This document shows positions 4,783 to 23,977 of a DNA stretch of 64,000 nt, piece by piece. The DNA is taken from positions 248,001 through 312,000 of the forward strand of contig NZ_CP101824.1 of NCBI RefSeq assembly GCF_024498195.1, written 5' to 3'. Source of the stretch: Halovivax cerinus. Lineage in GTDB: Archaea > Halobacteriota > Halobacteria > Halobacteriales > Natrialbaceae. Numbering within the stretch: the stretch's first letter is position 1; the number at the start of each line of letters is the position of its first letter. Below the pieces are notes generated by a model. It was not told the DNA's origin, made no database searches, and saw only the letters and a list, made by a program, of their open reading frames with translations. A program made the translations under genes and the position numbers.

Positions 4783-5901
4783 ATGTACGAAGGGCAAACA
4801 GTCGGCGTCGTGATTCCCGCGTACAACGAGGCGGGATTCGTCGGCGAGGTTATCGAGACGCTCCCGGAGATCGTCGACCGGGCGTACGTAGTCGACGACC
4901 GCTCGACCGACGACACCTGGTCCGAGATCGAAGCGGCGGCGATGCGGGTCAACGCGGCCGCCGGTGTCGATGGGACCGTCGACGCGATGGGCGAGGCGTC
5001 CGACGGAGTTCCACGCGGACGCGTCCAGGGCGGTGACCAGGTCGAGTCGACGAGCGAGGTGGCCACCGACTCGTCCCTGCACGCTGACGGCGGCGAACTG
5101 GTCACGCCACGGATCGTGACGGTCCGTCACAGCCGAAATCGGGGCGTCGGCGGCGCGATCAAGACGGGGTACGCGCTGGCGCGTGAGAACGGACTCGACG
5201 TGGTCGCGGTGATGAACGGCGACGGACAGATGGATCCGTCGTTGCTACAGCGGATCGTCGATCCCGTCGTTCGTGGACGGGCCGCCTACGCGAAAGGGAA
5301 CCGCCTCGCCAGTGCGGACGATCGAGCCGGGATGCCACCCTGGCGCCTGTTCGGCAACGCCGTCCTGACGTACATAACGAAACTCGTCAGCGGCTACTGG
5401 GGGATGAGCGACCCGCAGAACGGCTACACCGCGATCTCCCGTGACGCCCTCGAGGCGATCGAACTGGATCGCCTCTACGAGGGCTACGGCTTCTGCAACG
5501 ACGTCCTCGTCCACCTGAACGTCGAAGGCTTCCGCGTCGAGGACGTACCCATGCCCGCGCGGTACGGGGACGAGCAGAGCCACATTCGGTACTCGCGGTT
5601 CGTCCCGTCGCTGTCGTGGCTCCTCCTCCGGCGTGGCCTCTGGCGCTACCGGATGCAGTCCGTCGGCTCGGGTCCACGCCAGCCGTACCTCCTCCTGCTC
5701 GCCGGCGTCCTCGGCGGAACGGTCGGACTGGCCGCGCTGGGGGTCGCCGCCCTCACCGTCGGCGTCGGCTCGGCGGAAGCCGCCCTGTCGCTGCTCGCGG
5801 TTCTCCTCGGTGGTCTCTTCGTCGCGGTCGCCGTCACAGTGGACCGACTGCACGGTCGGTCGCCCGACACCGACGGATACGAGCCGGCCGGAGGTGACTG
5901 A
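4783..5901 (+). CDS. Family 2 glycosyltransferase with C-terminal membrane helices
   Basis: A 372-aa GT-A enzyme. VGVVIPAYNEAGFVGEVI begins the fold, VVDDRSTDDTW is the nucleotide-binding DDxS region, and VAVMNGDGQMDP carries the metal-binding DxD-like site. Two hydrophobic helices close the protein (about residues 310-360), as in dolichyl-phosphate sugar synthases and Agl-type transferases. An acidic insertion of about 45 aa separates the DDRS region from the next strand. I chose the ATG at 4783 (MYEGQTVGVV) over the upstream one at 4729. The stop is 2 nt before the GTG of wecB, so it leads a GT2-wecB-deacetylase operon. It probably charges a polyprenyl phosphate or extends a lipid-linked glycan. 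Confidence 0.88.
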   Translation: MYEGQTVGVVIPAYNEAGFVGEVIETLPEIVDRAYVVDDRSTDDTWSEIEAAAMRVNAAAGVDGTVDAMGEASDGVPRGRVQGGDQVESTSEVATDSSLHADGGELVTPRIVTVRHSRNRGVGGAIKTGYALARENGLDVVAVMNGDGQMDPSLLQRIVDPVVRGRAAYAKGNRLASADDRAGMPPWRLFGNAVLTYITKLVSGYWGMSDPQNGYTAISRDALEAIELDRLYEGYGFCNDVLVHLNVEGFRVEDVPMPARYGDEQSHIRYSRFVPSLSWLLLRRGLWRYRMQSVGSGPRQPYLLLLAGVLGGTVGLAALGVAALTVGVGSAEAALSLLAVLLGGLFVAVAVTVDRLHGRSPDTDGYEPAGGD

Positions 5902-5903
5902 GC

Positions 5904-7121
5904 GTGGGTGAGGACGCCCCGGAGGCGGCAACTCGCCGATCCGAATCGACGAGCGATAGCGAGTCGACGGCGACAGACGATCGCCGTTCCTCGGCGAAGG
6001 ACGACCGACCCCACGTCCTGAGCGTGATCGGCGCCCGGCCGCAGTTCGTCAAGGCGGCCGCCGTCTCGCGGGCCCTCTCGGGACGTGTCGACGAGACCGT
6101 CGTCCACACCGGCCAGCACTACGATCCCGAGCTCTCGGCGGTGTTCTTCGAGGAACTCGCCCTCGACGAACCCGATTACCACCTCGACGTCGGGTCGGAC
6201 ACGCACGCGGCCCAGACCGCCGCGGTGATGGTCGAGATCGAACGCCTCGTCGACGCCGAGGAACCAGACGCCGTCCTGGTCTACGGCGACACCAACTCGA
6301 CGCTCGCCGGCGCACTCGCCGCGACCAAGCGCGAGCCGACGCTCGTCCACGTGGAAGCCGGACTCCGGTCTGGGGATCGATCGATGCCCGAGGAGGTAAA
6401 CCGGATCTGCACCGATCACTGCGCGGACGTCCACTACGCGCCGAGTGAGACCGCCGTCGAGACGCTCGAACGCGAGGGGATCACCGACGGCGTGGTACGA
6501 TCCGGCGACGTCATGTACGACACGCTCCTCCAGGTTCGCGATCGGCTCGCGGACGACGACGTCGCCGACGCGCTCGTTCCTGCCGGGGAGACGGCGAGCG
6601 ACGGCCACCACGCCGATCGACTCGTCCCCGGAGACGACGCGTTCGTCCTCGCGACCGTCCACCGCGCCGCCAACACCGACGACCCGGACCGGCTGGAATC
6701 GATCGTCGAGGGGTTGTCGGCGCTCTCTCGGCCCGTGGTCCTGCCCGCTCACCCGCGGACCGTCGCCGCGCTGCGCCGCGAGGGGCTCTGGGAGCGGGCA
6801 CTCGACGGGATCGATCTCGTCGAACCGGTCGGCTACCTCGACTTCCTGCGCCTGCTCGTCGCGGCCGACCGCGTCGCCACGGACTCCGGCGGCGTCCAGA
6901 AGGAGGCGTTCTACCTCGATACGCCCTGCGTGACGCTACGCGAGACGACCGAGTGGGTCGAGACCGTCGAGACGGGCTGGAACCGCCTCGTCGGCGCGGA
7001 CGCCGACCGGATCGTCGAGGCGGTCGAGTCGGCCGTGCGCCCGGCACGGAAACCCGACCTCTACGGGAGCGGAACCGCTGCCTCGCGCATCGCCACCGAC
7101 GTAGAACGCCGACTGGGGTGA
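5904..7121 (+). CDS. wecB: UDP-N-acetylglucosamine 2-epimerase (non-hydrolysing)
   Basis: A 405-aa full-length WecB/MnaA-type enzyme that interconverts UDP-GlcNAc and UDP-ManNAc. Seen motifs: GARPQFVKAAAVSRAL at residue ~37, TGQHYD, YGDTNSTLAGA, HVEAGLRSGDRSMPEEVNR, HRAANTDD and the UDP-binding ATDSGGVQKEAFYL. The first ~30 residues are a variable acidic extension. It starts with GTG two bases after the GT2 stop and is followed 12 nt later by a deacetylase, so the three are cotranscribed. It supplies ManNAc or a derived uronate precursor to the local glycan pathway. No UDP-ManNAc dehydrogenase (WecC) is seen in the window. Confidence 0.95.
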   Translation: MGEDAPEAATRRSESTSDSESTATDDRRSSAKDDRPHVLSVIGARPQFVKAAAVSRALSGRVDETVVHTGQHYDPELSAVFFEELALDEPDYHLDVGSDTHAAQTAAVMVEIERLVDAEEPDAVLVYGDTNSTLAGALAATKREPTLVHVEAGLRSGDRSMPEEVNRICTDHCADVHYAPSETAVETLEREGITDGVVRSGDVMYDTLLQVRDRLADDDVADALVPAGETASDGHHADRLVPGDDAFVLATVHRAANTDDPDRLESIVEGLSALSRPVVLPAHPRTVAALRREGLWERALDGIDLVEPVGYLDFLRLLVAADRVATDSGGVQKEAFYLDTPCVTLRETTEWVETVETGWNRLVGADADRIVEAVESAVRPARKPDLYGSGTAASRIATDVERRLG

Positions 7122-8475: not shown

Positions 8476-9621
8476 TCACTCGTTCTGCGGAAGTGGTTCG
8501 GCCGGAGCAGGCTCGGCCGTCGACGTCGGCGCGTCGCGACGATCGAACCGATCGAGGGCGTCGACCCCGTCGGGGTCGCCCGCCGCGGTCGCCACCGCCA
8601 CGATGACGCGCGTCAGGTTGCAGCGATCGGCGAGGAACGCGTCCCGCCGGCGTCGCCAGGTCGCGTCCGTGCCGTCGGCCGACAAGAGTGTCGTCGCCCG
8701 TTCCAAGACGGCTTCGAACGCGGCCTCGTTGTAGATCATTCCGTTGCGTTCGAGCGCGCGGAAGTTGCCCATGTCGTCCGCGCCCACGAACGAGTTCGAC
8801 CGGATCGCGGGTGTTCCCAGCAGGGCGGCCTCGGTGACCATCGTCTGCGTGTCCGCGACGAGCAGGTCGGCGCCGGCGAGCGCGTCGTGTACCAGCGCCG
8901 GGTGGAGCGAGAACGGCCGCGCCGGGAGTCCGTCGTAGTCCATATCGCCGCCCTCGTCCGACACGAGGACGGTGGCGTGTGCGTCGAGGGTTTCGATCAA
9001 TTCGCGCCGGCGATCCGGCGTGAACCCACCCTTCCCGACGTCGTGGTGCGACCCGAACGCGTTCAGCCGGACGACGACGTACGGTTCGTCGCGATCGACG
9101 CCGAGGCGGTCGCGGATCGACGCGTCGTCCCCCGACTGGCGGGCGAATTCGTCCGGATGGAGGTACGCACACTCCTTCAGTCCCGGGAAGACGTAGTGGT
9201 CGTCACAGAGGCGCGTCTGGAATGTATCCGGCGTGAGGACCGTCCGCGCGAACGGCGTCGAGATCGCGTGGTCGAGCCCCGTCACCTCCGAGTCGATCAG
9301 GAGAACCACCGGTGTGCGCGTGAGGGCACCGGTATGGGCCGCGTACGCACCCATCCCGAAGATGAGGTCCGGATCGAACCGGCGGGCCACAGAGAGGGCG
9401 CGCGCGTAGTGTGCCGGCAGGTTGGCCAGCAGGGACCACTTCGACGTCTCACAGGCACCGTAGACCTCGTAGGGGAGGTCGTACCACTCGGCGAGGGCGA
9501 CGGTACAGCCGTAGTCCCTGGCGAGGACGAGCACGTCGTGACCCAGCGATTCGAGATCCGAAACGGCGTTTCGGTAGCAGTGGACGTGCGCCGGCGTGTT
9601 GGCGAATATGAGATACCGCAT
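8476..9621 (-). CDS. DUF354 family protein (GT-B-like)
   Basis: A 381-aa protein starting at MRYLIFANTPAHVHCYRN, the typical DUF354 opening. This is an archaeal/bacterial family with a GT-B-like two-domain fold, often found in polysaccharide clusters. Further signs are DLIFGMGAYAAHTGAL, VVLLIDSEVTGL and ADLLVADTQTMVTEAALLGTPAIRSNSFVG, a region like the sugar-nucleotide site of WecB-type enzymes. The frame is open upstream to 9768 but that part is arginine-rich; the ATG at 9621 is the natural start. It runs opposite to the wecB operon and convergent with it. The specific reaction is unknown. Confidence 0.82.
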   Translation of the reverse strand: MRYLIFANTPAHVHCYRNAVSDLESLGHDVLVLARDYGCTVALAEWYDLPYEVYGACETSKWSLLANLPAHYARALSVARRFDPDLIFGMGAYAAHTGALTRTPVVLLIDSEVTGLDHAISTPFARTVLTPDTFQTRLCDDHYVFPGLKECAYLHPDEFARQSGDDASIRDRLGVDRDEPYVVVRLNAFGSHHDVGKGGFTPDRRRELIETLDAHATVLVSDEGGDMDYDGLPARPFSLHPALVHDALAGADLLVADTQTMVTEAALLGTPAIRSNSFVGADDMGNFRALERNGMIYNEAAFEAVLERATTLLSADGTDATWRRRRDAFLADRCNLTRVIVAVATAAGDPDGVDALDRFDRRDAPTSTAEPAPAEPLPQNE

Positions 9622-9810: not shown

Positions 9811-11067
9811 CTACTGCAGGACGCGCTCGGCGAGATCGGCGGGCGTCACGACGTCGATACGACCGGCCGATTCGAGACGGTGAAGGTGTTCGATCGTCCG
9901 CTCGAAGTCGGTGCGCTGCTGGTCCGTCAGTTCGTGGTAGAAGAGACCGACGTGACCGCCCCACCGGGCGGCGCGGTCGAGCAGGTCGACGGCCGTCTCG
10001 GCGGACGGTTCCCCCACCCTGGGGCACAGGAGCGGCTCTACCGGGGCGCCACCGACGCCCCGTCCGGACCAGAACGCCAGGTCGTGGTACTCGTCGACGA
10101 TGTCGAGCGTTCGATCGGTCCACTCGCCGAACGGATAGGCGAAGTACCGGGCCCCGTCCTCGAAGCCGTGGTCGACGAGCCACTGGTGTGCGTCGGCGAT
10201 CTCCGTGACCTGTTCGTCGGCACTCAGGTCCTTCAGGCGCCGATGGGAGTACCTGTGACTACCGATCGTCCAGCCGGCGTCCGCCAGCCGTGAGCACCGT
10301 TCCAGGCCGAGTCGTCCGTCACCGCCGATCGTGGTTGGATTGACGAACGAGGTAGCGACGTACCCGTACCGATCGAGGATCGGAACCGCCTCTGTGTAGT
10401 CGGTCGCGTAGCCGTCGTCGAACTGGATCGTCACGGTACCGGTGGACCGACGTGGGACGAAGAACAGTTCGTCGACGTGCATCGTCCGCGCCCGATCGCC
10501 GACCCAGAGGGCGATGCGGATTTCTGCGACGTCGGAGAGGTCGACGGACCCCGTGACTGTCTCGAGACCGAACGAGTATCGCAGCGGTCGCCGATCACCG
10601 TTGATTCCGCGCCGGAAGTCGGCCCGGTTTTCGTCGCCGTCGAACAGCTGGATTCGCGGGACCACCGAGTCCCCGGTCGAGAGGATGAGTCCGGGAACGA
10701 CGTTCGAACAGTCGAGCGGTTCGGACAGCGTTCGACGGATCCACACTCGCTCGTCGGTGGTGTCGGCGTCGAGACGGGCCCCGCGCGGGGCGTCGTCCAG
10801 CGAACCGTCCAGTACCGTCCACGGCGAGAGGTCGTCGAAGTCGTCGAAGGGGTCGCCGTGGACGAGAGAGCGGCCGTCGTCGCGAGGATCGCCATCTTCG
10901 TTCCCTTCCCCAGGGGTATCGGATTCGCCGGGATCGTCAGTCGATTGGATAGTACTGGACGTGTTGGTGGCTCCGTCGACGCGATCGTCCGCCCGTCCGA
11001 TCCGATCGTGGTCGAGACAGCCCGCGAGTCCCGCCGCCGCGACAGAAAGGTACGTCCGCCGTTTCAT
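9811..11067 (-). CDS. Exported polysaccharide deacetylase lipoprotein
   Basis: A 418-aa protein. MKRRTYLSVAAAGLAGCLD has a Tat-like twin Arg and a lipobox Cys (LAGC), so it is a membrane-anchored lipoprotein. A Ser/Thr/Asp linker leads to a beta-sandwich-like middle (~60-190), then a NodB (CE4) domain. The CE4 motifs are complete: TIQFDDGYATDY (metal DD), GSHRYSHRRL (H-x3-H) and YFAYPFGEW. It should remove N-acetyl groups from an extracellular glycan. I chose the ATG at 11067, seven codons inside the longest frame, because it gives a proper signal peptide. About 170 nt separate it from the next minus-strand gene. Confidence 0.87.
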   Translation of the reverse strand: MKRRTYLSVAAAGLAGCLDHDRIGRADDRVDGATNTSSTIQSTDDPGESDTPGEGNEDGDPRDDGRSLVHGDPFDDFDDLSPWTVLDGSLDDAPRGARLDADTTDERVWIRRTLSEPLDCSNVVPGLILSTGDSVVPRIQLFDGDENRADFRRGINGDRRPLRYSFGLETVTGSVDLSDVAEIRIALWVGDRARTMHVDELFFVPRRSTGTVTIQFDDGYATDYTEAVPILDRYGYVATSFVNPTTIGGDGRLGLERCSRLADAGWTIGSHRYSHRRLKDLSADEQVTEIADAHQWLVDHGFEDGARYFAYPFGEWTDRTLDIVDEYHDLAFWSGRGVGGAPVEPLLCPRVGEPSAETAVDLLDRAARWGGHVGLFYHELTDQQRTDFERTIEHLHRLESAGRIDVVTPADLAERVLQ

Positions 11068-11234: not shown

Positions 11235-13118
11235 TTACTCGGCTATCGACATGTCGTCCAGTAGCTCGATGAGCGTCACGACGCGGTGGCGTTGTTCGTC
11301 CGCGAGTGCCGTATACGTGCCGACGGCGTCGTATTCCCAGTCCAACACGAGCTGGTGGAGATAAGCCATCGGCAGGTACACCTCGAACGTCCGATACGGC
11401 AAATCGACCGCGTCACAGTACCGACGAACGCACGATCGTGCGCGTTCTCCGAGTTCGGTATCGTCACACAGGACCGTCCGGACTCGGTCCTCGAAATCGC
11501 CGACGAGCCACGCAGCCGTGTTGAGAAGCAAGTAGCCGGCGTCGACGATCGGGGAACCGGTCGGCGCACCGTACTCCCAGTCGATAACGGACGTGATCGT
11601 CCGGCCATCGAAATAGATGTTACTAGACATGAAATCGCCGTGAACCGGAGTGGAAAACGTCGTCGCCGGGGCGTCGACGGCGGGAGGATCGATGTTCGCC
11701 GGCGAACATCGCATCTCCGTCCGGATCTCCGCGGGCGACCGTTCGATCGGATCCCCGCCGTACGTGCGCTGGAAATCGGCGAGCCACTCGTACCCGATCC
11801 GGAGAATCCGTTCCATGGAGTCGACGTCCCGTCCGACCGCGTCGTCGAGCGGACGCCCCTCGGCCGGTACTACCCGACGGACCGATCCGAACGGAGACTG
11901 CAGCGAATCGCCGTTCGGGATTGTCTCCGCAATAGCAGCGTCGGAACTGCTGAGGGCCGACGTGACGCGGTTCTCGCGTTCGGTGTACGGCTCGTGGGTT
12001 GCCCGATTCGGTACTTTGTGGATATCTGAGATGCCGGACTCGTCCACGTCGAGGACGATCGAGCGGGCTCGACCACCCACCACGAGCGGATCGTCGAACC
12101 CGAACGGCGACGGTTTCGAGCGGGTGGAACAGACGACGAGAAGCGAGGGATAGCACCGCTTTACCAGCCCGCTCCGGTTCGCCACCCGCATCAGCTTCTC
12201 GACGGCGGTCCCGAGCGCACCGTGTTCGTTCGCGTAGGCGTCGAATATCTGCGGGATGGCGTGTGCGTTCTCGACGTCGAATGCGTACAGCGGTCGTGAA
12301 GCGGTCGGAAAGAGTGCGTACACAGAGACGTCGTCGAATCCTGCGTCGGCTGCGAGCGTTCGGTATCCGTTCGCGGTTCCCGGGCCCACACCGAGCGCTC
12401 CTGTTCTATCGGTTTGCACCGGTTCGATCCGCTCGGTGAGACCCGTCCGACTCGGCCAGCCGTCAGCCAGAAAGACGAGTGAACCGTCGTCGGAGAGGTA
12501 GCGACGAACCCGTTCGAGCCGCGACCGATCGACGCGTTCGCCGGTGAAGTCGGCGACGACGGTCTGGAACGTATCGTCCCGGAACGGAAGTCGCCGGTCG
12601 GTAGAATGAACGGGGGTGACCCGCTCCGCGCTGGCGTAATCGTCTCGAACGGCGACGATTCGAAGCTTGTCGAGCGAGGCTTCGACCGCGTACACCGATT
12701 TGGCGTGCTCGGCGAGCACCATCGACCGTCGACCGTACCCGGCGTTCAGGTCCAAACACCGCCCGGTGATGTACTCCGCGACGAGCGGGAGCCACAGGTC
12801 CTGCTGGACGTCGAAGACTGTCGATAGTACCGACTCCCGGTGCGGGTGATCCCCGAGCACCTCGTCGGCCGCAGTACGAATCGACATCGTCGTCGCCGTT
12901 CTGGCGAACTCCGCGAGAGTCGCCTCCGAGAGCGGCCATGAGGACGGTTCGTCGGCTGGTCGACACGAGACGATTCCGTACCGTTCGACCAGCTCGGCGT
13001 CACAATGGTCACACACCATCGAATCGTCCGAGAACGTCGCGGAACAATCCGGACAAACCAGTTCGGCGAGGTCGGACGACGTCCGCGACGGTGACCACAC
13101 GTTCCTCGATCGTGTCAT
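11235..13118 (-). CDS. Zinc ribbon - methyltransferase - APH phosphotransferase fusion
   Basis: A 627-aa protein with three parts. Residues ~22-39 form a zinc ribbon (CPDC, CDHC). About 95-330 is a class I SAM methyltransferase (motif I LDLNAGYGRR, acidic AVEASLDK, later FLADGWPSR). About 380-620 is an aminoglycoside-phosphotransferase/choline-kinase-like kinase with the catalytic HGDFMSSN and metal-binding VIDWEYG. The ATG overlaps the TGA of the flippase gene (ATGA), so the two are translationally coupled and probably work on one pathway: methylating and phosphorylating a glycan or lipid-linked intermediate. The substrate is unknown. The frame extends further upstream but is only the antisense of the flippase gene. 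Confidence 0.82.
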   Translation of the reverse strand: MTRSRNVWSPSRTSSDLAELVCPDCSATFSDDSMVCDHCDAELVERYGIVSCRPADEPSSWPLSEATLAEFARTATTMSIRTAADEVLGDHPHRESVLSTVFDVQQDLWLPLVAEYITGRCLDLNAGYGRRSMVLAEHAKSVYAVEASLDKLRIVAVRDDYASAERVTPVHSTDRRLPFRDDTFQTVVADFTGERVDRSRLERVRRYLSDDGSLVFLADGWPSRTGLTERIEPVQTDRTGALGVGPGTANGYRTLAADAGFDDVSVYALFPTASRPLYAFDVENAHAIPQIFDAYANEHGALGTAVEKLMRVANRSGLVKRCYPSLLVVCSTRSKPSPFGFDDPLVVGGRARSIVLDVDESGISDIHKVPNRATHEPYTERENRVTSALSSSDAAIAETIPNGDSLQSPFGSVRRVVPAEGRPLDDAVGRDVDSMERILRIGYEWLADFQRTYGGDPIERSPAEIRTEMRCSPANIDPPAVDAPATTFSTPVHGDFMSSNIYFDGRTITSVIDWEYGAPTGSPIVDAGYLLLNTAAWLVGDFEDRVRTVLCDDTELGERARSCVRRYCDAVDLPYRTFEVYLPMAYLHQLVLDWEYDAVGTYTALADEQRHRVVTLIELLDDMSIAE

Positions 13119-14578
13119 AGCGTCGTTTGAATTTTTCGGACGTCTAGCAGGCCGGTAATCGTCGAGAGGGCCGCCCAGACGGCCAGTCCGAGCAGGATGA
13201 TCGCGACGAGCGACGGCCAACCGTCGACGTAGCCGTTCGCCGGAAGAACGACGACGACCATCCCGGCAGTCACCCCGACGATTCCCCCGACGCGACGGGC
13301 CAGGCGCCCGAGTCGAAGGTCGAACTCCTGATGGATGATGAGAACGTTCGCGGCGGTGTAGATCGAGTACGTCACCACCGTCGCGATCGCCGCACCGGCG
13401 ACGCCGAGGATCGGGATCAACGCCACGTTCAGGACCACGTTGCCCGCGGCGGTCGCCCCCTTCACGATCGCGCGCGATTTTGCGCGGCCCAGGAAGTCGA
13501 GCGCGTTGCTGGTTATCTTCGTCACGGCTTGCAAAATCGCGTACAGCGAGAGGATCTGCAAGACGGGAACGGCGTCCAGATAGGCGGCCCCGAACACGAG
13601 CTCGATCGTCGGTTCGGCGACCAGGACGATCCCCGCCGCCGCCGGGATGTACAGCAACAGCGAGTGCGTCAGCGCCTCCTCGTACATTCGCGCCGCTTCC
13701 GCGACGTTTCCGTCGGCCTTCTGCGCTCCGAACGACGGGGAGAGGGTAAAGCCCAGCGCCGAGACCGGCGCTTCGAGAAACTCCACGATCTGTTTGCTGA
13801 TGACGTAGTACGAGACGGCTATCGGCGAGAGGAAAAAGCCCACGAGCACGGTGTCGATCTGTTTGTCGAGAACGTTCGCCGTGTTCGTGGCGGTCAACGG
13901 GACGGTGTACTCTCCGATTCGGCGGCGAAGGCCGGATTCCATCGCGCTCGCCGGCTCGACGGAACGGAACGCGCGCCGGTGGACGACCCACAGTCCGACG
14001 AGCGAGGCGACAGCGAAACTCACCACGTAGCCGACTAGCGCGCCGAGCGCGCCGAACCCGGCGATAACCAGCGCGGCGGCGATGACTAGCCGGGAGATTC
14101 GGTTGAGCGCGTGGACGGTCGCAGCGGTTTCTATCTCCTCGAATCCCTGTAACGTGAGTCGAGTGAACGTCGCGAGCGCCTGGAACGGGAGAAAGAGGAG
14201 TCCGAGCAGCAAGAACGGTACCAGTGCGGGTTCCTCCAGAACGACGGCCAGGTGCCGATGCCCGAGGAGCAACGCGATCCCGACGACGGTGACCGTCGCC
14301 GCGTTAAACAGTACCGAGACGCGGAGGATGTGCGGGAGCTGGCCAGGATCCTGTGCCTTGTACGTCGTTATGTATCGGGCGCAGGACTTGGCGATACCGA
14401 GCTTGCTGAAAACGCCCAGGACGCCGAAGACGGCGATCGCGAGGAACAGTAATCCGTACTCGGTGGGCCCGAGCAACCGCGCGAGGACGACCATCAGCAA
14501 CCCGCCCGAGAGGGTCGCGACGATCCGACCGACGAATTCGAACGTAAACCGCGAGACCAGGCTGTCCGTCTCGGTCAT
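13115..14578 (-). CDS. Polysaccharide flippase (MATE/MVF superfamily, AglR/Wzx-like)
   Basis: A 487-aa polytopic protein with about 12-14 helices. The N-terminal region (RFTFEFVGRIVATLSGGLLMVVLARLLGP, read in parts) followed by GPTEYGLLFLAIAVFG is the standard opening of polysaccharide biosynthesis/flippase proteins. A second half-repeat begins at YTVPLTATNTANVLDKQID. It should move a lipid-linked glycan across the membrane. The start at 14578 (MTETDS) is preferred to 14611. It is the first gene of a two-gene operon with the methyltransferase-kinase fusion (4-nt overlap). Confidence 0.92.
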   Translation of the reverse strand: MTETDSLVSRFTFEFVGRIVATLSGGLLMVVLARLLGPTEYGLLFLAIAVFGVLGVFSKLGIAKSCARYITTYKAQDPGQLPHILRVSVLFNAATVTVVGIALLLGHRHLAVVLEEPALVPFLLLGLLFLPFQALATFTRLTLQGFEEIETAATVHALNRISRLVIAAALVIAGFGALGALVGYVVSFAVASLVGLWVVHRRAFRSVEPASAMESGLRRRIGEYTVPLTATNTANVLDKQIDTVLVGFFLSPIAVSYYVISKQIVEFLEAPVSALGFTLSPSFGAQKADGNVAEAARMYEEALTHSLLLYIPAAAGIVLVAEPTIELVFGAAYLDAVPVLQILSLYAILQAVTKITSNALDFLGRAKSRAIVKGATAAGNVVLNVALIPILGVAGAAIATVVTYSIYTAANVLIIHQEFDLRLGRLARRVGGIVGVTAGMVVVVLPANGYVDGWPSLVAIILLGLAVWAALSTITGLLDVRKIQTTL

Positions 14579-15186: not shown

Positions 15187-17400
15187 ATGACGAAAGACGA
15201 GACAAGCCGACTGGCGGATACCGGTCTCGATCGGCGGTCGTATCTGAAAGCGGCGACCGGAATCGCCGGACTCGCCGCCCTCGGTACGAGCGCGTCGGCG
15301 GCGACAGACTACGAAGAGATCGTCGTCGATTCCGGGGAGACGTACAGAAAATCGTTGTCCGACGGAGAAACGTGGGAAAACGTCGTCCTCGATATCACCG
15401 CCCCAGGCGCGGGGTATTCGATCACGGCGACGGCGGACGACTGGACCGTCCGCAACGTCGGCGTACGCGGTGACTGGGACCACGATCCCGGCTCCCAGCA
15501 GTTCATCGTTCGGACGGATAGCGCCGACGCGACCGGTCTGGTCGAGAACGTCTATCTCGGCGACGGCACGCAGGGCGGCGGCGACCCCGGTGGACTGTTC
15601 GTTCACGCTCGCCACGCGGGAACGGTTACCATCCGCAACTGTAACATTCAGGGCTTTCCCGACAACGGCATCTACGGGTCGGCCCCCGGAACGTCCCACG
15701 GCAACGGGGGCGTCGTCCGGATCGAGAACACCTACGTGGCGGACTGCGGATCGTCCGGACTGCGGATCGGATCTGACGGATCGTCCGTCGAAAATTGCGT
15801 CGCGTGGGACTGCGACCGCGGCCTCTGGTGTCTGTTCAGCGACGAGCTCGAGGCGATCGACTCGAACTTCGGCGCGAGCGGGTTCGACATCCGCGTCGGT
15901 AGTGGCTCGCAAGAATCCGGCGGGCCGTACGGAGAACTGTCGGTCACGAACACGCGGTGGGAAAGCGAGCAACTCGAACGCTCCCAGAACGCGATTCACG
16001 GATCCTCAGCAGGGGCGCCGGCCCACCGTGGTCCCGATGCCCTCGGCGCACCGACGTCGCCCGAAGCGGCGGCAAGCGGAGACGGCTCCGGTGACGAACC
16101 AGCACCCGAACCGGAGCCCGAACCCGAGTTCCCGGAGGACGGCCACCTCGTCGCGTTCGTCACGGAACCGGACGCGTCCTACGCGTCTCACGAGTTCTAC
16201 GCCGACGGGCCCGTCTCCTTCGCGGAGGCGCCCTACGACAGCCCGTCCGGCAAGTCCATCGAGGGCGGGACGTACACGAACCGGGACTTCGTCGAGGAGA
16301 CAGACGACGGCTGGCACGCCGGCGGAACCACCGGCGGCGGCGCAGGCGACGCGTACGTGGTCGAGGGCCCGGTCACCTCCGTCACCGTCGATCAGCCCGA
16401 CGTCATGTGGATCGAACTCGACGGCGAGCGAGTGAGCGAAGACGAACTCGTGTCGAAGACCGGCGGCGACCAGGACGACGAGGAGACCGGCGTCGAGTCC
16501 GATCTCGTCGCGTTCGTCACGGAACCGGACGCCGCCTACGCGTCCCACGAGTTCTACGCCGACGGGCCCGTATCCTTCGCGGAAGCGCCCTACGACAGCC
16601 CGTCCGGAGGGTCCATCGAGGGCGGGACGTACACGAGTCGGGACTTCGTCGAGGAGGTCGACGGCACCTGGCACGCGGGCGGCGTCACCGGCGGCGGCGC
16701 GGGCGACGCGTACGCGGTCGAGGGGCCGGTCACCTCCGTCTCCGTCGACCAGCCAGACGTCATGTGGATCGAACTCAACGGGGAGCGAGTGTCGGAAGCG
16801 GAGCTCGTCGAGCGAACGGGCGGCGACCCCGGTGACGACCCCGAATCGGAGACCCACACGCTCGAAGTCGCCGGACAGTTCGACTACCGGGTCGAAGTCT
16901 CCGGTGAGATCCGACCCGCCGAGTCCCACGCCCGGTGGCTCTCAGAGGGCGAGGCGTACGGCGACGACTGGGCCGAGTGGTGGCTCTCGGGCTCCGACAG
17001 CGCTCGCACCGTCTGGGAGTTCACCGGTGAGATCACGAGTCTGGAGATCGACGATCACGACGGCACGACCGAGCTGCGCACGCTCGCCGTCGACGGCGAG
17101 GAACTCGATCACGGCGAGTACGTCGACACCGGCCCCCACCGGCTCGACGTCGCCGGCCAGTTCGCCTACCGCGTCGAAGTCTCAGGCGAGATTCGACCGG
17201 CCGACGCCCACGCAAAGTGGCTGAACGAAGGCGATGCCTACGGTGACGACTGGGCCGAGTGGTGGCTCTCCGGCTCCGAGAGCGCCCGGACCGTCTGGGA
17301 GTTCACTGGCGACATCACCAGCCTCGACGTAGGCGACTACGACGGCGTCACGGACGTCCGGGCGCTCACCGTCGACGGCGAACCCGTCGAGGAGGTCTGA
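15187..17400 (+). CDS. Tat-exported beta-helix protein 1 with two pairs of C-terminal repeats
   Basis: A 737-aa protein. A twin-Arg signal (DRRSYLKAATG, then ASA-type cleavage near residue 40) directs Tat export. Residues ~42-300 look like a right-handed parallel beta-helix (short repeating strands such as VTIRNCNIQGFPDNGIYG, ENCVAWDCDRGLWCLF). An EPEPEPEPE linker leads to four modules: two ~105-aa units beginning LVAFVTEPDA (residues ~319 and ~439) and two ~92-aa units of the type VAGQFxYRVEVSGEIRP (~557, ~650). It is the largest of three paralogues. It is probably a cell-surface, polysaccharide-binding or processing protein; I see no clear lyase active site. Confidence 0.85.
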   Translation: MTKDETSRLADTGLDRRSYLKAATGIAGLAALGTSASAATDYEEIVVDSGETYRKSLSDGETWENVVLDITAPGAGYSITATADDWTVRNVGVRGDWDHDPGSQQFIVRTDSADATGLVENVYLGDGTQGGGDPGGLFVHARHAGTVTIRNCNIQGFPDNGIYGSAPGTSHGNGGVVRIENTYVADCGSSGLRIGSDGSSVENCVAWDCDRGLWCLFSDELEAIDSNFGASGFDIRVGSGSQESGGPYGELSVTNTRWESEQLERSQNAIHGSSAGAPAHRGPDALGAPTSPEAAASGDGSGDEPAPEPEPEPEFPEDGHLVAFVTEPDASYASHEFYADGPVSFAEAPYDSPSGKSIEGGTYTNRDFVEETDDGWHAGGTTGGGAGDAYVVEGPVTSVTVDQPDVMWIELDGERVSEDELVSKTGGDQDDEETGVESDLVAFVTEPDAAYASHEFYADGPVSFAEAPYDSPSGGSIEGGTYTSRDFVEEVDGTWHAGGVTGGGAGDAYAVEGPVTSVSVDQPDVMWIELNGERVSEAELVERTGGDPGDDPESETHTLEVAGQFDYRVEVSGEIRPAESHARWLSEGEAYGDDWAEWWLSGSDSARTVWEFTGEITSLEIDDHDGTTELRTLAVDGEELDHGEYVDTGPHRLDVAGQFAYRVEVSGEIRPADAHAKWLNEGDAYGDDWAEWWLSGSESARTVWEFTGDITSLDVGDYDGVTDVRALTVDGEPVEEV

Positions 17401-17530
17401 GCCTGTCGAGCCGGGCTATACCCGTCGAGGAGGTCTGAATCGGCCGTCTCAGCCCGGTCGAATGTCGGAGAACCCACTCGCCATCGACACGCGGAGCCGT
17501 GTGAACGAATACCGCGATAGACACGCGGGG

Positions 17531-17592
17531 TAATATATCAGCAACACCTGAAGGTCAAGGGGTTAGCGTTGTCCGTCGTTCCGGAGAGACAC
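17531..17592 (+). promoter_or_regulatory. Promoter and leader of beta-helix gene 2 (copy shared with gene 3)
   Basis: A TATA-like TAATATAT at 17531-17538 is followed by AGGTCAAGGGGTTAGCGT and CGTCGTTCCGGAGAGAC just before the ATG; CCGGAGAGA can serve as a ribosome-binding site. Almost the same leader precedes gene 3 (19203-19243). Confidence 0.6.
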
Positions 17593-19101
17593 ATGAACGA
17601 AACCGACAGGGCGTCGAGACTGACTGGCAATCGAGAAACAAGTCGACGGAGGTACCTCCTCGGTGCGGGGACGGCACTCGGGTCGCTCGGCCTCGTGAGC
17701 GGGGCCAGCGGGCGAGCGGCGGGGGCGACGGGCTACGAGACGATCACGGTCGGCGCCGGTGAGACGTACCGAAAGTCCCTCTCTGACGACGAGACGTGGG
17801 AGAACAAACTCATCGACATCACCGCACCCGGCGCGGGCTACCGGATCACCGCCAGCGCGAATAACTTCGAGATCCGCAATATAGGCATCCGCGGCCGGTG
17901 GGACCACGATCCGGGGTCGCAGGCGTTCGTCGTCTACGTGCCGAACGCGGGTGCGACCGGGCGGATCGAGAACTGTTACGTCGGCGACGGCGCGACGGGG
18001 ACCGACCCCGGCGGCCTGTTCGTCCACAGGAAGCACCGGGGCACGCTCACGGTCGACCGGTTCACCGTCCAGGGGATGGGTGACAACGGCATCTACGCGT
18101 CCGCGCCCGGTTACGGTGGCGCCAGCAATGGCGGACAGGGCGACGTCCACATCAGGAACTCCTACGCCGCGAACAATCGCTCGTCGGGCTTCCGGCTGGG
18201 TTCGTCCGGATCGACGATCGAGAACTCGTCGATGTGGGGGAACGACCGGGGCCTCTGGTGTCTGTTCGATCACGTCCGGGCGACGAACTGCGACATGGGA
18301 GACAACGGCATCGACGTCCGCGTCGGCAGCGGGTCACAGGAAGCGGGTGGTCCATACGGCGAATTGACGGTCGACAGCTGTCGGTACGGGACGACACAGA
18401 TCGAGCGTTCGCAGAACGCCATCTACGGCTCGTCACTGGGGTCGCCTCGACGCCGCGGACCCGCCGACGTCGGCGCACCGGCCTCCGCCGAAGCCGCCGC
18501 GCGTGGCGCTCCCGTCACCGGAGACGAGAACGAAACTACCCCCGATCGGAACGTCCACACGCTCGACGTCGCCGGTCAGTTCGCCTACCGAGTCGAGGTC
18601 TCCGGCGAGATTCGACCGGCCGATGGACACACCCGCTGGCTCACCGAGGGTGAGTCCTACGGCGACGACTGGGCCGAGTGGTGGCTCTCGGGCTCCGACA
18701 GCGCCCGTACCGTCTGGGAGTTCACCGGCGAGATCACGAGTCTGGAGATCGACGATCACGACGGCACGACCGAGCTGCGTACGCTCGCCGTCGACGGCGA
18801 GGAACTCGATCACGGCGAGTACGTCGACACCGGCCCCCACCGGCTCGACGTCGCCGGCCAATTCGCCTACCGCGTCGAGGTCTCCGGCGAGATTCGACCG
18901 GTCGACGCCCACGCGAAGTGGCTGAACGAAGGCGAGGCCTACGGCGACGACTGGGCCGAGTGGTGGCTCTCGGGCTCCGACAGCGCTCGCACCGTCTGGG
19001 AGTTCACCGGTGAGATCACGAACCTCGACGTCGACGACTACGACGGCGTCACCGACGTCCGGACGCTCGCCGTCGACGGCGAGCCGATCGACGAGGTCTA
19101 A
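17593..19101 (+). CDS. Tat-exported beta-helix protein 2 with two C-terminal repeats
   Basis: A 502-aa paralogue of the preceding gene. A Tat signal (SRRRYLLGAGTALG) leads into a beta-helix domain (~45-300; DNGIYASAPGYGGASNGG, DRGLWCLFDHV) and then two VAGQFAYRVEVSGEIRP-type modules at ~322 and ~415. It lacks the LVAFVTEPDA modules of gene 1. The frame opens with a TTG at 17569, but the ATG at 17593 has the ribosome site. Its repeat modules are nearly identical in DNA to those of gene 1, and its beta-helix shares a perfectly identical 209-bp tract with gene 3, which suggests recent exchange. Confidence 0.85.
   Translation: MNETDRASRLTGNRETSRRRYLLGAGTALGSLGLVSGASGRAAGATGYETITVGAGETYRKSLSDDETWENKLIDITAPGAGYRITASANNFEIRNIGIRGRWDHDPGSQAFVVYVPNAGATGRIENCYVGDGATGTDPGGLFVHRKHRGTLTVDRFTVQGMGDNGIYASAPGYGGASNGGQGDVHIRNSYAANNRSSGFRLGSSGSTIENSSMWGNDRGLWCLFDHVRATNCDMGDNGIDVRVGSGSQEAGGPYGELTVDSCRYGTTQIERSQNAIYGSSLGSPRRRGPADVGAPASAEAAARGAPVTGDENETTPDRNVHTLDVAGQFAYRVEVSGEIRPADGHTRWLTEGESYGDDWAEWWLSGSDSARTVWEFTGEITSLEIDDHDGTTELRTLAVDGEELDHGEYVDTGPHRLDVAGQFAYRVEVSGEIRPVDAHAKWLNEGEAYGDDWAEWWLSGSDSARTVWEFTGEITNLDVDDYDGVTDVRTLAVDGEPIDEV
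17986..18194 (+). repeat. 209-bp tract identical to 19634-19842
   Basis: Every base is the same as in 19634-19842, inside the beta-helix regions of paralogues 2 and 3, while flanking codons differ. This points to gene conversion or recent duplication. Confidence 0.9.
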
Positions 19102-19180
19102 CCAGACGCGACCCCGACCGAACCGGAATCTGGCCGACCCGCCCAACCCTCCCCGGCCGGGAATCGAGGATAGAGACCCG

Positions 19181-19243
19181 GTAATATACGATTAACAGAT
19201 GCAGGTCAAGGGGTTAGCGTCGCTCGTCGTTCCGGAGAGACGA
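19181..19243 (+). promoter_or_regulatory. Promoter and leader of beta-helix gene 3
   Basis: A TATA-like GTAATATACG at 19181-19190, then the shared leader AGGTCAAGGGGTTAGCGT and CGTCGTTCCGGAGAGAC ending at the ATG. It matches the leader at 17552-17591 with only a few changes, so genes 2 and 3 are likely expressed alike. Confidence 0.6.
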
Positions 19244-20173
19244 ATGAGTGATGCGGACGCGAACGGACGAGCTACTTCCGATCGAGGGACGAGTCGCCGC
19301 GGATATCTCTTCGGCGCCGGGACGGTACTCGGCTCGCTCGGGCTCCTCGTGACGACCGGCCGATCGGCCGCCGCCGAAAACGTCGAGACGATCACGGTCG
19401 GCACCGGTGAGACGTACCGAAAGTCCCTCTCCGACGGCGAGACGTGGGAGAACAAACTCATCGACATCACCGCACCCGGCGCGGGATATCAGATCACCGC
19501 CTCGGCGAACGACTGGGCGATTCGCAACGTCGGTATTCGAGGCCGGTGGGACCACGATCCAGGGTCGCAGGCGTTCGTCGTCGCCGTCCCGGAGGCGGAC
19601 GCGTCCGGAACGATCGAGAACTGCTACGTCGGTGACGGCGCGACGGGGACCGACCCCGGCGGCCTGTTCGTCCACAGGAAGCACCGGGGCACGCTCACGG
19701 TCGACCGGTTCACCGTCCAGGGGATGGGTGACAACGGCATCTACGCGTCCGCGCCCGGTTACGGTGGCGCCAGCAATGGCGGACAGGGCGACGTCCACAT
19801 CAGGAACTCCTACGCCGCGAACAATCGCTCGTCGGGCTTCCGACTGGGTTCGTCCGGATCGACGATCGAGAACTCCGTGATGTGGAACAACGATCGGGGA
19901 CTCTGGTGTCTGTTCGAATCGATAGAGGCGGCTGACTGCGACATGGGCGGTAACGGCATCGACGTCCGCGTCGGAAGCGGGTCACAGGAAGCGGGTGGTC
20001 CGTACGGCGAGCTAGCGGTCACCGACTGTCGGTTTGGAGCGAGCCAGGTGGAGCGCTCGCAGAACGCCCTCCACGGCTCGTCCCAGGGGTCGCCTCGACG
20101 CCACGAGCCCGCCGACGTCGGCGCACCGGCCTCCGCCGAAGACGCCGCTCGGAGTGTCGTCTGCTATCGGTGA
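19244..20173 (+). CDS. Tat-exported beta-helix protein 3, without C-terminal repeats
   Basis: A 309-aa paralogue with a Tat signal (SRRGYLFGAGTVLG) and the same beta-helix domain (DNGIYASAPGYGG, DRGLWCLFESIEA). It ends at AARSVVCYR, exactly where gene 2 goes on into its linker and repeat modules. No remains of the modules are visible downstream, so this is either a natural short form or an old truncation. The ATG at 19244 follows the same CCGGAGAGA site as in gene 2. The in-frame ATG at 19199 lies inside the conserved leader and is less likely. Confidence 0.83.
   Translation: MSDADANGRATSDRGTSRRGYLFGAGTVLGSLGLLVTTGRSAAAENVETITVGTGETYRKSLSDGETWENKLIDITAPGAGYQITASANDWAIRNVGIRGRWDHDPGSQAFVVAVPEADASGTIENCYVGDGATGTDPGGLFVHRKHRGTLTVDRFTVQGMGDNGIYASAPGYGGASNGGQGDVHIRNSYAANNRSSGFRLGSSGSTIENSVMWNNDRGLWCLFESIEAADCDMGGNGIDVRVGSGSQEAGGPYGELAVTDCRFGASQVERSQNALHGSSQGSPRRHEPADVGAPASAEDAARSVVCYR
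19634..19842 (+). repeat. 209-bp tract identical to 17986-18194
   Basis: Second copy of the identical tract in paralogue 3. Confidence 0.9.
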
Positions 20174-22186: not shown

Positions 22187-23977
22187 CTACGATCGGCTGT
22201 CGACGTAGTAGATGGTCACTTCTCCGCTCGATTGGAGCCGGTGGACGCCCGGCTGTGTCGAAACCGACGACAGTTGCGAGTCGGTGTATCGAATTTCCCG
22301 GTACGCGATCGTCTCGCGCTCGTGATCCATCTCCGTTACGACCAGGTACCGATCCGATTCGAGTGACGTCAGCCCGGCGTCGATCTCCTCGCCGGTGACG
22401 GCGCCGTACGAACTGGTGCGATCGAGGGGCGCGTAGTGGGCGTCGGCGTACCGGTTCGGGCCGCTGCGGATGCCGACGAAGCCGATGTCGTCCGCCGCGT
22501 CGAACGCATCCGCGTGCTCGGACATCGACTGTTCGGTGACGTGCGGCGCGGGTTTGTACACGTACGGTGAAGCGAACACGCCGACCAGCGACGCGACGAG
22601 GAGGACCCCGATCGCGACGGCGACGCCGGCCTGCGCGAGTCGTCGGGTCCGGGCCCGCGTGATCGCTTCCATGCCGTAGGCGAGCGCCACGGCGCCGGTG
22701 ATGGTGACAAACAACATCATGAAGCCGAAGACGCGAACGTACATCATCCCCGACGAGCCGAAGAAGTACAGGAAGAAGAGGACGGTCAACCCGGCGAGAC
22801 CGACCGTGAAGTACGCGACGAGCGAGCGCAACTGCCCGTGCCGTCGGCGGCCCACTCCGAGACCCACGCCGAGGACGAGGAGCCCGGTGAGGACGCCGAA
22901 GACGAGGTGCGGACCCAGGATCTTGAGGACGACGACCGCCAGACTCCCGCCCACGGCCGAGAGGGAATCGGCCTGCGAACCGACCGAGGACCCGGCGGTG
23001 TCGTTGGTACCGAGGAGGAACTCGACCGTGCTGACGAGGTGGAACCTGATCACGCGCTGGATGAGCTCGTGGGTCGCACTCCAGGCGAGAAAGGCGACGG
23101 CGAGTACGGCCGTCAATCCGTATATCGGCGTGTGGCGAGCGATGGCGTCGAACCCGCGGACGCGACGGGCGAGCGCCTGCGTCACGCAGATGCCGAACAA
23201 CACCACCAGCAGGTGGGCGGCGAGCTGCGGGTGATACAGCACGATCGCGACGAGCAACAGCGCGGCGAGGAGACCGTACCCGCGACGGGAGCGTCCGTCG
23301 GGCCCCTGCCCGAGGTAGGCAACGAGCACGAAGACGAACGCCGCGGAGAAGAGGATGGCCTGCGACATCGAGTGTGGGGTGATGAACGTACTGAGCGTCG
23401 TGATTGGCAGGAGCAAGAACGCAGAGAATGCCCCGAAGATCGGACTGTATCGACTGTCGAAGGTTCGCGCCGTCGCCATCGCGACGAAGCCGAAGAAGAG
23501 CCCGCACAGCCCGACGATGACCAGCATCATCGCGTGCGCGAGTCCGACGCCGAGCGTCTCTCCCACCAGGGTCGTCACGGTGTGCAATCCGGGGTAGCGA
23601 AGGTCCCTCGGCCCGTACGCGCCGGAGGCGATGCCGCGGGCCCAGCCCAGATGCGTCAGGGCGTCACCGCCCGAGATGAACCAGTACCCCCGGAGCACTG
23701 GCATCCCGGCGACGACCATGGCCGCCCCGCCGCCGAGACAGAGCGCGAGCCGCCGGAGCCATCCGGCCGACGTCGCGAGCGCGAGCGACAGCGAGAGGGC
23801 GAACGCGACGCCGAGCAGCCGCCACACCCAGACCGGCGTCGCCGCGTAGATCGAGAGTTCGTAGCCGGTTGCCGGCGACTCGTGCGCGAGGGCGATCGCC
23901 CCCGTGAGGGCACCGAAGCCGATCGCCAGGAGGGCTCGTTCGCCCGGCGTCGCCAGTTGCGAACGCTGCGTCGTCAT
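22187..23977 (-). CDS. Multi-spanning membrane protein, GT-C glycosyltransferase-like
   Basis: A 596-aa protein with about 13 hydrophobic helices and a C-terminal soluble tail of ~120 aa. The first outside loop carries GGDALTHLGWARGI, an acidic D-x-x-x-H loop of the kind used by GT-C (Pmt/Stt3/ArnT-like) transferases that take sugars from lipid carriers. The tail (DIGFVGIRSGPNRYADAHY) may be extracytoplasmic. It likely adds a sugar from a polyprenyl-phosphate donor outside the cell. It is followed on the same strand by nothing close; the formyltransferase-deacetylase pair lies just upstream (135 nt), so cotranscription is possible. Confidence 0.75.
   Translation of the reverse strand: MTTQRSQLATPGERALLAIGFGALTGAIALAHESPATGYELSIYAATPVWVWRLLGVAFALSLSLALATSAGWLRRLALCLGGGAAMVVAGMPVLRGYWFISGGDALTHLGWARGIASGAYGPRDLRYPGLHTVTTLVGETLGVGLAHAMMLVIVGLCGLFFGFVAMATARTFDSRYSPIFGAFSAFLLLPITTLSTFITPHSMSQAILFSAAFVFVLVAYLGQGPDGRSRRGYGLLAALLLVAIVLYHPQLAAHLLVVLFGICVTQALARRVRGFDAIARHTPIYGLTAVLAVAFLAWSATHELIQRVIRFHLVSTVEFLLGTNDTAGSSVGSQADSLSAVGGSLAVVVLKILGPHLVFGVLTGLLVLGVGLGVGRRRHGQLRSLVAYFTVGLAGLTVLFFLYFFGSSGMMYVRVFGFMMLFVTITGAVALAYGMEAITRARTRRLAQAGVAVAIGVLLVASLVGVFASPYVYKPAPHVTEQSMSEHADAFDAADDIGFVGIRSGPNRYADAHYAPLDRTSSYGAVTGEEIDAGLTSLESDRYLVVTEMDHERETIAYREIRYTDSQLSSVSTQPGVHRLQSSGEVTIYYVDSRS

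What the first reader, a model, noticed from the sequence alone, without database searches (positions are those of the whole stretch)
11235..13118. Zinc ribbon - methyltransferase - APH kinase fusion coupled to a flippase
One 627-aa protein joins a Cys4 ribbon, a SAM methyltransferase (LDLNAGYGR) and a choline/aminoglycoside-kinase-like domain with intact HGDFMSSN and IDWE, and overlaps the flippase gene by ATGA. Capping of a lipid-linked glycan by methylation and phosphorylation, as in bacterial O-antigen chain termination (WbdD: kinase plus methyltransferase), is a striking parallel built from a different kinase family.
Basis: partly seen in the sequence, partly recalled or inferred. Interest (0 to 1): 0.6.

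Follow-up and report, generated by a model that had tools for sequence, protein, structure and literature searches.

The report
Archaeal glycan-capping kinase-methyltransferase beside flippase
A salt-loving archaeon carries one protein that joins a methylating and a phosphorylating enzyme and is inherited together with a membrane sugar flippase, so it probably puts a phosphate (and often a methyl) mark on surface sugar chains before they are turned to the outside, much as some bacteria cap their chains.

Summary
Confirmed: the 627-aa ORF (minus strand, 11235-13118) holds a Cys4 ribbon, a class I methyltransferase (MTase) and an APH-family kinase, and overlaps the upstream flippase stop by ATGA. 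It belongs to a family found as 31 copies in 27 of 391 haloarchaeal genomes. The kinase core (K, HGD, N, D, E) is intact in 31 of 31; MTase motif I in only 20 of 31; the Cys4 ribbon in 15 of 31. The flippase link is real: 16 of 32 fusions have a flippase directly upstream, and the 11 closest relatives of the window's flippase (itself included) among 391 genomes all lie in genomes with the fusion, 10 of them next to it. Fusion and flippase distances match (r 0.89, 16 loci). In a Thermoplasmata genome the same three parts are three adjacent genes. Most likely the protein phosphorylates, and where the MTase is intact methylates, a lipid-linked glycan before flipping. The closest proven parallel is not WbdD but the Klebsiella O7 terminator, which also pairs an MTase with an APH-like kinase and makes methylphosphate. 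The coiled-coil ruler and ABC exporter of those systems are missing here. Substrate and product are untested; structure prediction failed.

The parts
11235..13118 (-). Fusion protein, 627 aa: Zn ribbon - class I SAM methyltransferase - APH-family kinase
12954..13064 (-). Cys4 ribbon, residues about 19-55 (C22, C25, C36, C39)
   Evidence: sequence; Cys4 in 15 of 31 relatives with the starts used
12264..12821 (-). Methyltransferase domain, residues about 100-285; motif I LDLNAGYGR at 122-130
   Evidence: Pfam Methyltransf_11 above cut-off; profile matches to solved MTases
11238..12086 (-). APH-like kinase domain, residues 345-627; K368, H493-G494-D495, N500, D513-W514-E515
   Evidence: Pfam APH above cut-off; residues invariant in 31 of 31
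13115..14578 (-). MOP/Wzx-type polysaccharide flippase, 487 aa; overlaps the fusion by ATGA
9811..11067 (-). Polysaccharide deacetylase with an export signal (read by eye), next gene downstream, same strand
   Evidence: Polysacc_deac_1 1e-20
8476..9621 (-). DUF354/GT4-like glycosyltransferase, same strand, downstream
   Evidence: homologues beside several fusions
15187..17400 (+). Tat-type right-handed beta-helix protein
   Evidence: Beta_helix; cluster beside many fusions
17593..19101 (+). Second beta-helix protein of the same family
19199..20173 (+). Third beta-helix protein of the same family
   Evidence: same cluster
22187..23977 (-). DUF6541-like membrane protein, recurrent neighbour
5904..7121 (+). 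UDP-GlcNAc 2-epimerase (WecB-like) of the same glycan island
   Evidence: Epimerase_2 1.3e-97
4783..5901 (+). GT2 glycosyltransferase of the same island
   Evidence: Glycos_transf_2 7e-20

Best explanation
The protein is a cytoplasmic two-step modifying enzyme of a lipid-linked surface glycan. Its APH-type kinase uses ATP to phosphorylate a sugar of the glycan, most likely the outer (non-reducing) end; its SAM methyltransferase then most likely methylates that phosphate, giving a methylphosphate cap, before the partner MOP flippase turns the glycan outward. Shown: the domains, their catalytic residues, overlap and co-inheritance with the flippase, and the split three-gene form. Inferred: that the substrate is the glycan carried by that flippase, the order of steps, and methylation of the phosphate rather than of another hydroxyl. 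In relatives with a degenerate methyltransferase the product would be phosphate only.
For: Kinase core in 31 of 31. Flippase directly upstream, same strand, within 300 nt in 16 of 32 fusion loci (31 from the genomes searched plus Halomontanus rarus L088). The 11 flippases of at least 59% identity to the window's (itself included) among 391 genomes all lie in fusion-bearing genomes, 10 next to the fusion. Fusion and flippase distances correlate, r 0.886, 0 of 2000 permutations as high, 16 loci. In L033 (Thermoplasmata) flippase, Zn-ribbon MTase and kinase are three successive genes, the kinase 29% identical to the window's; in four haloarchaeal genomes the MTase and kinase are two genes overlapping by 4 nt, and the profile of these split MTases matches the fusion's with hhalign 99.3%, from the ribbon through the C-terminal part. 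The window is a glycan island. A bacterial enzyme with MTase plus APH-like kinase makes a methylphosphate glycan end (PMC11231755).
Against: No substrate or product data. MTase motif I is lost in 11 of 31, including both other copies in this genome. 8 of 32 fusion loci show no flippase in the fetched stretch, nor do the four haloarchaeal split loci. WbdD is not among the 60 shown of 92 PDB profile matches. Hhalign scores to the O7-type MTase are no better than to an unrelated MTase for the fusion profile and little better for the split profile. Structure models had pLDDT 37.5 and 45.2 and are unusable.
Confidence: 0.5

Rival explanations
1. Two independent decorations: the kinase phosphorylates one position and the methyltransferase O-methylates a different hydroxyl of the same lipid-linked glycan; no methylphosphate is made.
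For: The MTase profile also matches sugar O-methyltransferases in the PDB such as D-glucose O-methyltransferase 6uv6. The MTase decays while the kinase stays, in several separate places of the tree.
Against: Consistent fusion or 4-nt overlap of just these two enzymes is easier to understand if one makes the substrate of the other, as in the two bacterial terminators (PMC3482155, PMC11231755).
Confidence: 0.25
2. Phosphorylation is the main function: the methyltransferase-like domain is mainly a glycan-binding or structural platform, catalytic only in part of the family.
For: Kinase core 31 of 31, motif I 20 of 31; 16 of those 20 also keep the acidic residue at position 146; some degenerate copies keep the DGWxR stretch.
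Against: In the window and most of its nearest relatives motif I and the acidic residue are intact, and the split MTases score well above the Pfam cut-offs.
Confidence: 0.12
3. A small-molecule or free-sugar kinase (salvage or activation of a sugar) with a fused methyltransferase that modifies a sugar precursor, not the lipid-linked glycan.
For: PF01636 kinases are mostly small-molecule kinases (recalled); profile matches include antibiotic kinases.
Against: Co-inheritance with one flippase clade and compact flippase-fusion pairs point to a late, membrane-near step.
Confidence: 0.1

Closest known systems
Klebsiella pneumoniae O7 terminator ORF6(O7) N-terminal part (PMC11231755; passages and section 11, part 1, read)
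   Same: N-terminal SAM methyltransferase followed by a kinase whose fold is nearest an APH-family kinase (AmiN); acts on a surface glycan; product methylphosphate shown by NMR.
   Different: Coiled coil, CBM and GT2 modules follow; ABC exporter. The paper found no sequence similarity of its kinase to other known kinases; the presumed homologues of P. asturiensis and Citrobacter read DAVPQN and DAIPSN at the catalytic loop, while the archaeal one has HGDFMSSN and DWE.
WbdD of E. coli O9a / K. pneumoniae O3 (PMC3482155; abstract, outline and Results part 1 read)
   Same: MTase then kinase in one chain; phosphorylates then methylates a glycan end.
   Different: Kinase resembles eukaryotic protein kinases; C-terminal region 460-708 with coiled coil; ABC exporter. 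Not found by our profile among the 60 PDB rows shown of 92.
Haloarchaeal Agl N-glycosylation with flippase AglR and methyltransferase AglP (roles recalled; papers seen only in a search listing)
   Same: Lipid-linked glycan, flippase, methylation; a flippase 54% identical to the window's sits with aglF and aglM.
   Different: No kinase-methyltransferase of this kind is known to us there.
PF01636 APH / choline-kinase-like family
   Same: K, HGDxxxxN and DxE core, above the Pfam cut-off.
   Different: Fused to a ribbon and an MTase; partner of a flippase.

Membership tests
Methylphosphate chain terminators (WbdD / KpO7 ORF6 type) | MTase domain N-terminal to kinase domain in one chain | tested here: met
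Methylphosphate chain terminators (WbdD / KpO7 ORF6 type) | Kinase catalytic residues present | tested here: met
   31 of 31
Methylphosphate chain terminators (WbdD / KpO7 ORF6 type) | SAM-binding motif present | tested here: met
   met in the window; 20 of 31 in the family
Methylphosphate chain terminators (WbdD / KpO7 ORF6 type) | Long C-terminal coiled-coil ruler | tested here: not met
   by length only: 45 residues follow the last nearly invariant position L582; WbdD has residues 460-708 there. No coiled-coil predictor was run
Methylphosphate chain terminators (WbdD / KpO7 ORF6 type) | Wzm/Wzt-type ABC exporter in the cluster | tested here: not met
   Walker A plus ABC-signature pattern within 10 kb in 3 of 32 loci, none the window; those ORFs are 609-663 aa
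Methylphosphate chain terminators (WbdD / KpO7 ORF6 type) | Sequence kinship with known terminators | tested here: inconclusive
   MTase aligns to the P. asturiensis protein, hhalign 94.3% (A1) and 98.6% (A3), but an unrelated MTase scores alike over a shorter stretch; kinase 24.8%
Methylphosphate chain terminators (WbdD / KpO7 ORF6 type) | Methylphosphate on the glycan end | not testable with these tools
   needs biochemistry
APH phosphotransferase family (PF01636) | Pfam score above gathering cut-off; K, HGDxxxxN, DxE | tested here: met
   30.0 vs 23.2 bits; 27 of 31 members match at E 0.01
Class I SAM methyltransferase | Pfam score above cut-off; motif I; acidic residue after beta2 | tested here: met
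   Methyltransf_11 24.2 vs 21.2; D123, G127, G129, E146
MOP-type flippase (partner gene) | Polysacc_synt / Polysacc_synt_3 above cut-off | tested here: met

The most novel reading that the evidence does not exclude
The phosphate or methylphosphate cap is an export tag in a flippase (Wzx-like) pathway: the MOP flippase has evolved with the capping enzyme to accept only capped glycans, coupling capping to flipping as exporter recognition does in some ABC pathways (that last point recalled). This would be an archaeal, flippase-based version of cap-dependent export, made of three parts (flippase, ribbon MTase, APH kinase) that occur in Halobacteria and Thermoplasmata and were later fused.
Probability: 0.2. 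Interest if true: 0.78.

Novelty: new variant of a known kind. Interest (0 to 1): 0.57.

Why it matters
Methylphosphate capping of surface glycans is known from a few bacterial O-antigens exported by ABC transporters. An archaeal counterpart tied to a flippase would give a testable rule for how archaea mark glycans for export, show the same two-enzyme pairing built on a different scaffold, and tell glycan chemists to look for phosphate in haloarchaeal glycans.

Tried and rejected
Structure: the 627-aa protein folded alone gave pLDDT 37.5; the kinase domain with one relative gave 45.2, and its PDB comparison found nothing with E of 0.001 or less. No fold claim is made. Viral origin: a scan of viral contigs with P0001 found no relative. 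A relationship of the Rubrobacter plasmid MTase to the family was looked at and dropped: its neighbours are metal and sulfur genes; it served as a control. The beta-helix and DUF6541 proteins gave no useful PDB match. Similarity of the archaeal MTase to O7-type terminators was at first taken as special; control comparisons with two other MTases showed the scores are not discriminating, only the aligned stretch is longer. A paper on an archaeal version was sought; none of the listings showed one.

Limits of the counts: relatives come from 391 genomes drawn evenly from the class. Gene calls outside the window come from a simple codon-usage script, so starts, and hence the Cys4 count and gap sizes, are uncertain; paralogue L060 shows a full Cys4 ribbon if a longer GTG start is used (L002). 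The 20 control stretches were set by me at fixed offsets in genomes that bear the fusion or, in one case (L111), the split pair; they were not drawn at random. Stretches L040 and L059 were shorter than 20 kb and the window is 64 kb, so presence counts are approximate. Motif I was counted as D or E at 123 with G127 and G129; L040, L043, L049, L052, L054, L055 and L059-L063 fail it.

Full report
What is there. The finding lies on the minus strand. Translation of 11235-13118 (-) gives 627 codons from an ATG to a stop; the plus strand in that register is closed by stops. Bases 13118-13115 read ATGA, so the ORF starts inside the stop of the flippase ORF 13115-14578. Pfam gives APH at 30.0 bits (cut-off 23.2), residues 486-549, and Methyltransf_11 at 24.2 bits (cut-off 21.2), residues 122-216; Methyltransf_25 is just under its cut-off and ribbon models are far below theirs, so the ribbon rests on the CxxC...CxxC pattern itself. 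The flippase is a Polysacc_synt_3/MOP protein.

Surroundings. The window is a glycan island: GT2, UDP-GlcNAc 2-epimerase, polysaccharide deacetylase-like genes, a DUF354-like glycosyltransferase, three Tat-type beta-helix proteins, type I phosphodiesterase-like enzymes, GNAT (Acetyltransf_6) proteins and a DUF6541-like membrane protein (some by cluster or by eye). Downstream of the fusion on the same strand follow a deacetylase and the DUF354-like gene, with gaps of 167 and 189 nt. Two genomes of its family match named plasmid records at the same or nearly the same coordinates: G254 with Haloterrigena alkaliphila and G029 with Natrialbaceae archaeon AArc-T1-2, so it is probably a member of Natrialbaceae (inference).

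The family. A search of 391 haloarchaeal genomes gives 31 copies of the fusion in 27 genomes (E under 1e-29); the window's genome has three. The other matches in that search are shorter: split pairs, a remnant, lone kinases or lone methyltransferases. A profile search of 392 genomes drawn from the phylum found no fusion outside Halobacteria among the rows shown. A named copy is on a plasmid of Halomontanus rarus, annotated only 'phosphotransferase', in the order flippase, fusion, beta-helix, with a DUF6541 gene near.

Catalytic residues. In the 31-row alignment K368, H493, G494, D495, N500, D513 and E515 are invariant. Motif I of the methyltransferase (D/E123, G127, G129) is kept in 20 of 31, of which 16 also keep an acidic residue at 146; 11 of 31 fail. 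On a kinase-domain tree the failing rows fall in several separate places: L040; L043 with L049; L054; L055; L062; and a clade of L052, L059, L060, L061 and L063, which holds both other copies of this genome. Some forks are weak. The Cys4 ribbon is complete in 15 of 31 with the starts used. So the kinase is the constant part and the methyltransferase a part that can be lost.

The flippase link. Of 32 fusion loci (31 plus Halomontanus), 16 have a flippase directly upstream on the same strand within 300 nt, 4 more have one within 600 nt in another arrangement or distance, 4 have one farther away and 8 none in the stretch. Over all 37 stretches examined, five of them split forms, a flippase is present in 25, against 3 of 20 control stretches; beta-helix 17 of 37 against 1 of 20; DUF6541 17 of 37 against 0 of 20. 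More telling is descent. Among 391 genomes the 11 flippases at least 59% identical to the window's (itself included) are all in genomes with the fusion; 10 lie directly upstream of it and the eleventh (G020) lies about 148 kb from its fusion, still beside a beta-helix gene. The next best, 57% and below, mostly stand elsewhere. Against the pattern: G207 holds a close fusion (L035) whose flippase is not of this clade and lies downstream. Pairwise distances of fusion and flippase correlate at r 0.886 over 16 loci, with 0 of 2000 label permutations as high; shared species history contributes to this. In L041, L043, L049, L051 and L053 the flippase-fusion pair, with or without a beta-helix gene, stands without a hit to the GT4 or DUF6541 profiles used; other neighbours there were not annotated. 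In G061 a remnant of the kinase remains next to the flippase.

The split form. In a Thermoplasmata MAG (L033) three successive genes encode a flippase, a ribbon-bearing methyltransferase and a kinase, the last two overlapping by 4 nt. In four haloarchaeal genomes (L064-L067) the methyltransferase and kinase are likewise two genes overlapping by 4 nt, with DUF6541 genes and genes clustering with a beta-helix protein and a PL14-like lyase nearby, without a flippase found by our profile. The split methyltransferases align with the fusion's from the ribbon through the C-terminal part (hhalign 99.3%, E 2.6e-20), and the L033 kinase is 29% identical to the window's kinase, sharing YEWLADFQ and HGDF. 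The tree puts the split kinases together, but long branches meet there.

How it most likely works. A kinase that is never lost, joined to a methyltransferase and inherited with one flippase clade, fits a late cytoplasmic modification of the glycan that this flippase moves. The best precedent for chemistry is the Klebsiella O7 terminator: its methyltransferase and APH-like kinase together put a methylphosphate on the non-reducing end of a glycan, shown by mass spectrometry, NMR and a kinase mutant (PMC11231755, section 11 part 1 and passages). WbdD does the same with a kinase of eukaryotic type (PMC3482155, abstract and Results part 1). Here the chain-length ruler is absent by length and no ABC exporter is tied to the fusion, so capping or decoration before flipping is more likely than length control. 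Not shown: substrate, site, and whether the methyl goes on the phosphate.

A caution on kinship. The P. asturiensis and Citrobacter braakii plasmid proteins found on the way look like O7-type terminators: methyltransferase, unannotated kinase-like segment and an adjacent ABC exporter, and in P. asturiensis also a coiled-coil-like stretch (by eye) and GT2 domains. The SAM-binding residues that the paper names for ORF6(O7) (Y28, Y66, G91, G93, E112, Y158) are invariant at the same numbers in their alignment. The archaeal methyltransferase aligns to the P. asturiensis protein over 212 (fusion profile) and 172 columns (split profile), but an unrelated Rubrobacter methyltransferase scores as well or nearly so over 122 and 109 columns, so no special kinship is claimed.

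Print record. Searches of the held library for haloarchaeal flippase with kinase and methyltransferase, methylphosphate glycans of archaea, haloarchaeal exopolysaccharide clusters with flippase and phosphorylated haloarchaeal glycans listed no paper describing this fusion; most subscription journals are not held, and the listed papers other than the two cited were not read.

Verdict. Observation confirmed; interpretation partly supported. New variant of a known kind: an archaeal, flippase-linked counterpart of bacterial methylphosphate capping enzymes, with function inferred.

Noticed in passing
L059 and L060 (own genome C1, about 2.436-2.466 Mb): Both other copies of the fusion in this genome have lost MTase motif I but keep the kinase core; they sit in a second glycan island with a PF02397 sugar transferase and an NTP_transf_5 plus thymidylate-kinase-like pair.
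   Followed up: partly
L033 7209-18652: The Thermoplasmata flippase-MTase-kinase trio lies two genes from what look by eye like isopentenyl phosphate kinase, IPP isomerase and prenyl synthase genes, a possible hint at the lipid carrier, or chance.
   Followed up: no
L091 5980-10353 and L126 5995-7944: Plasmids of Pseudomonas asturiensis and Citrobacter braakii carry proteins annotated as glycosyltransferase or methyltransferase that look like O7-type MTase-kinase terminators beside ABC exporters; the kinase part is unannotated.
   Followed up: partly
L113 (G061) about 3855-4204: Kinase remnant right beside a flippase, as if the fusion decayed there.
   Followed up: partly
window 15187-20173: Three tandem Tat-type beta-helix proteins, a family found near many fusions; one split locus was also scanned and carries a Beta_helix protein, in a cluster shared by all four. 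Role unknown.
   Followed up: partly
L112 5276-8452: A flippase 54% identical to the window's follows a polysaccharide pyruvyl transferase, with aglF and aglM near: another modifying enzyme beside the same flippase group.
   Followed up: no
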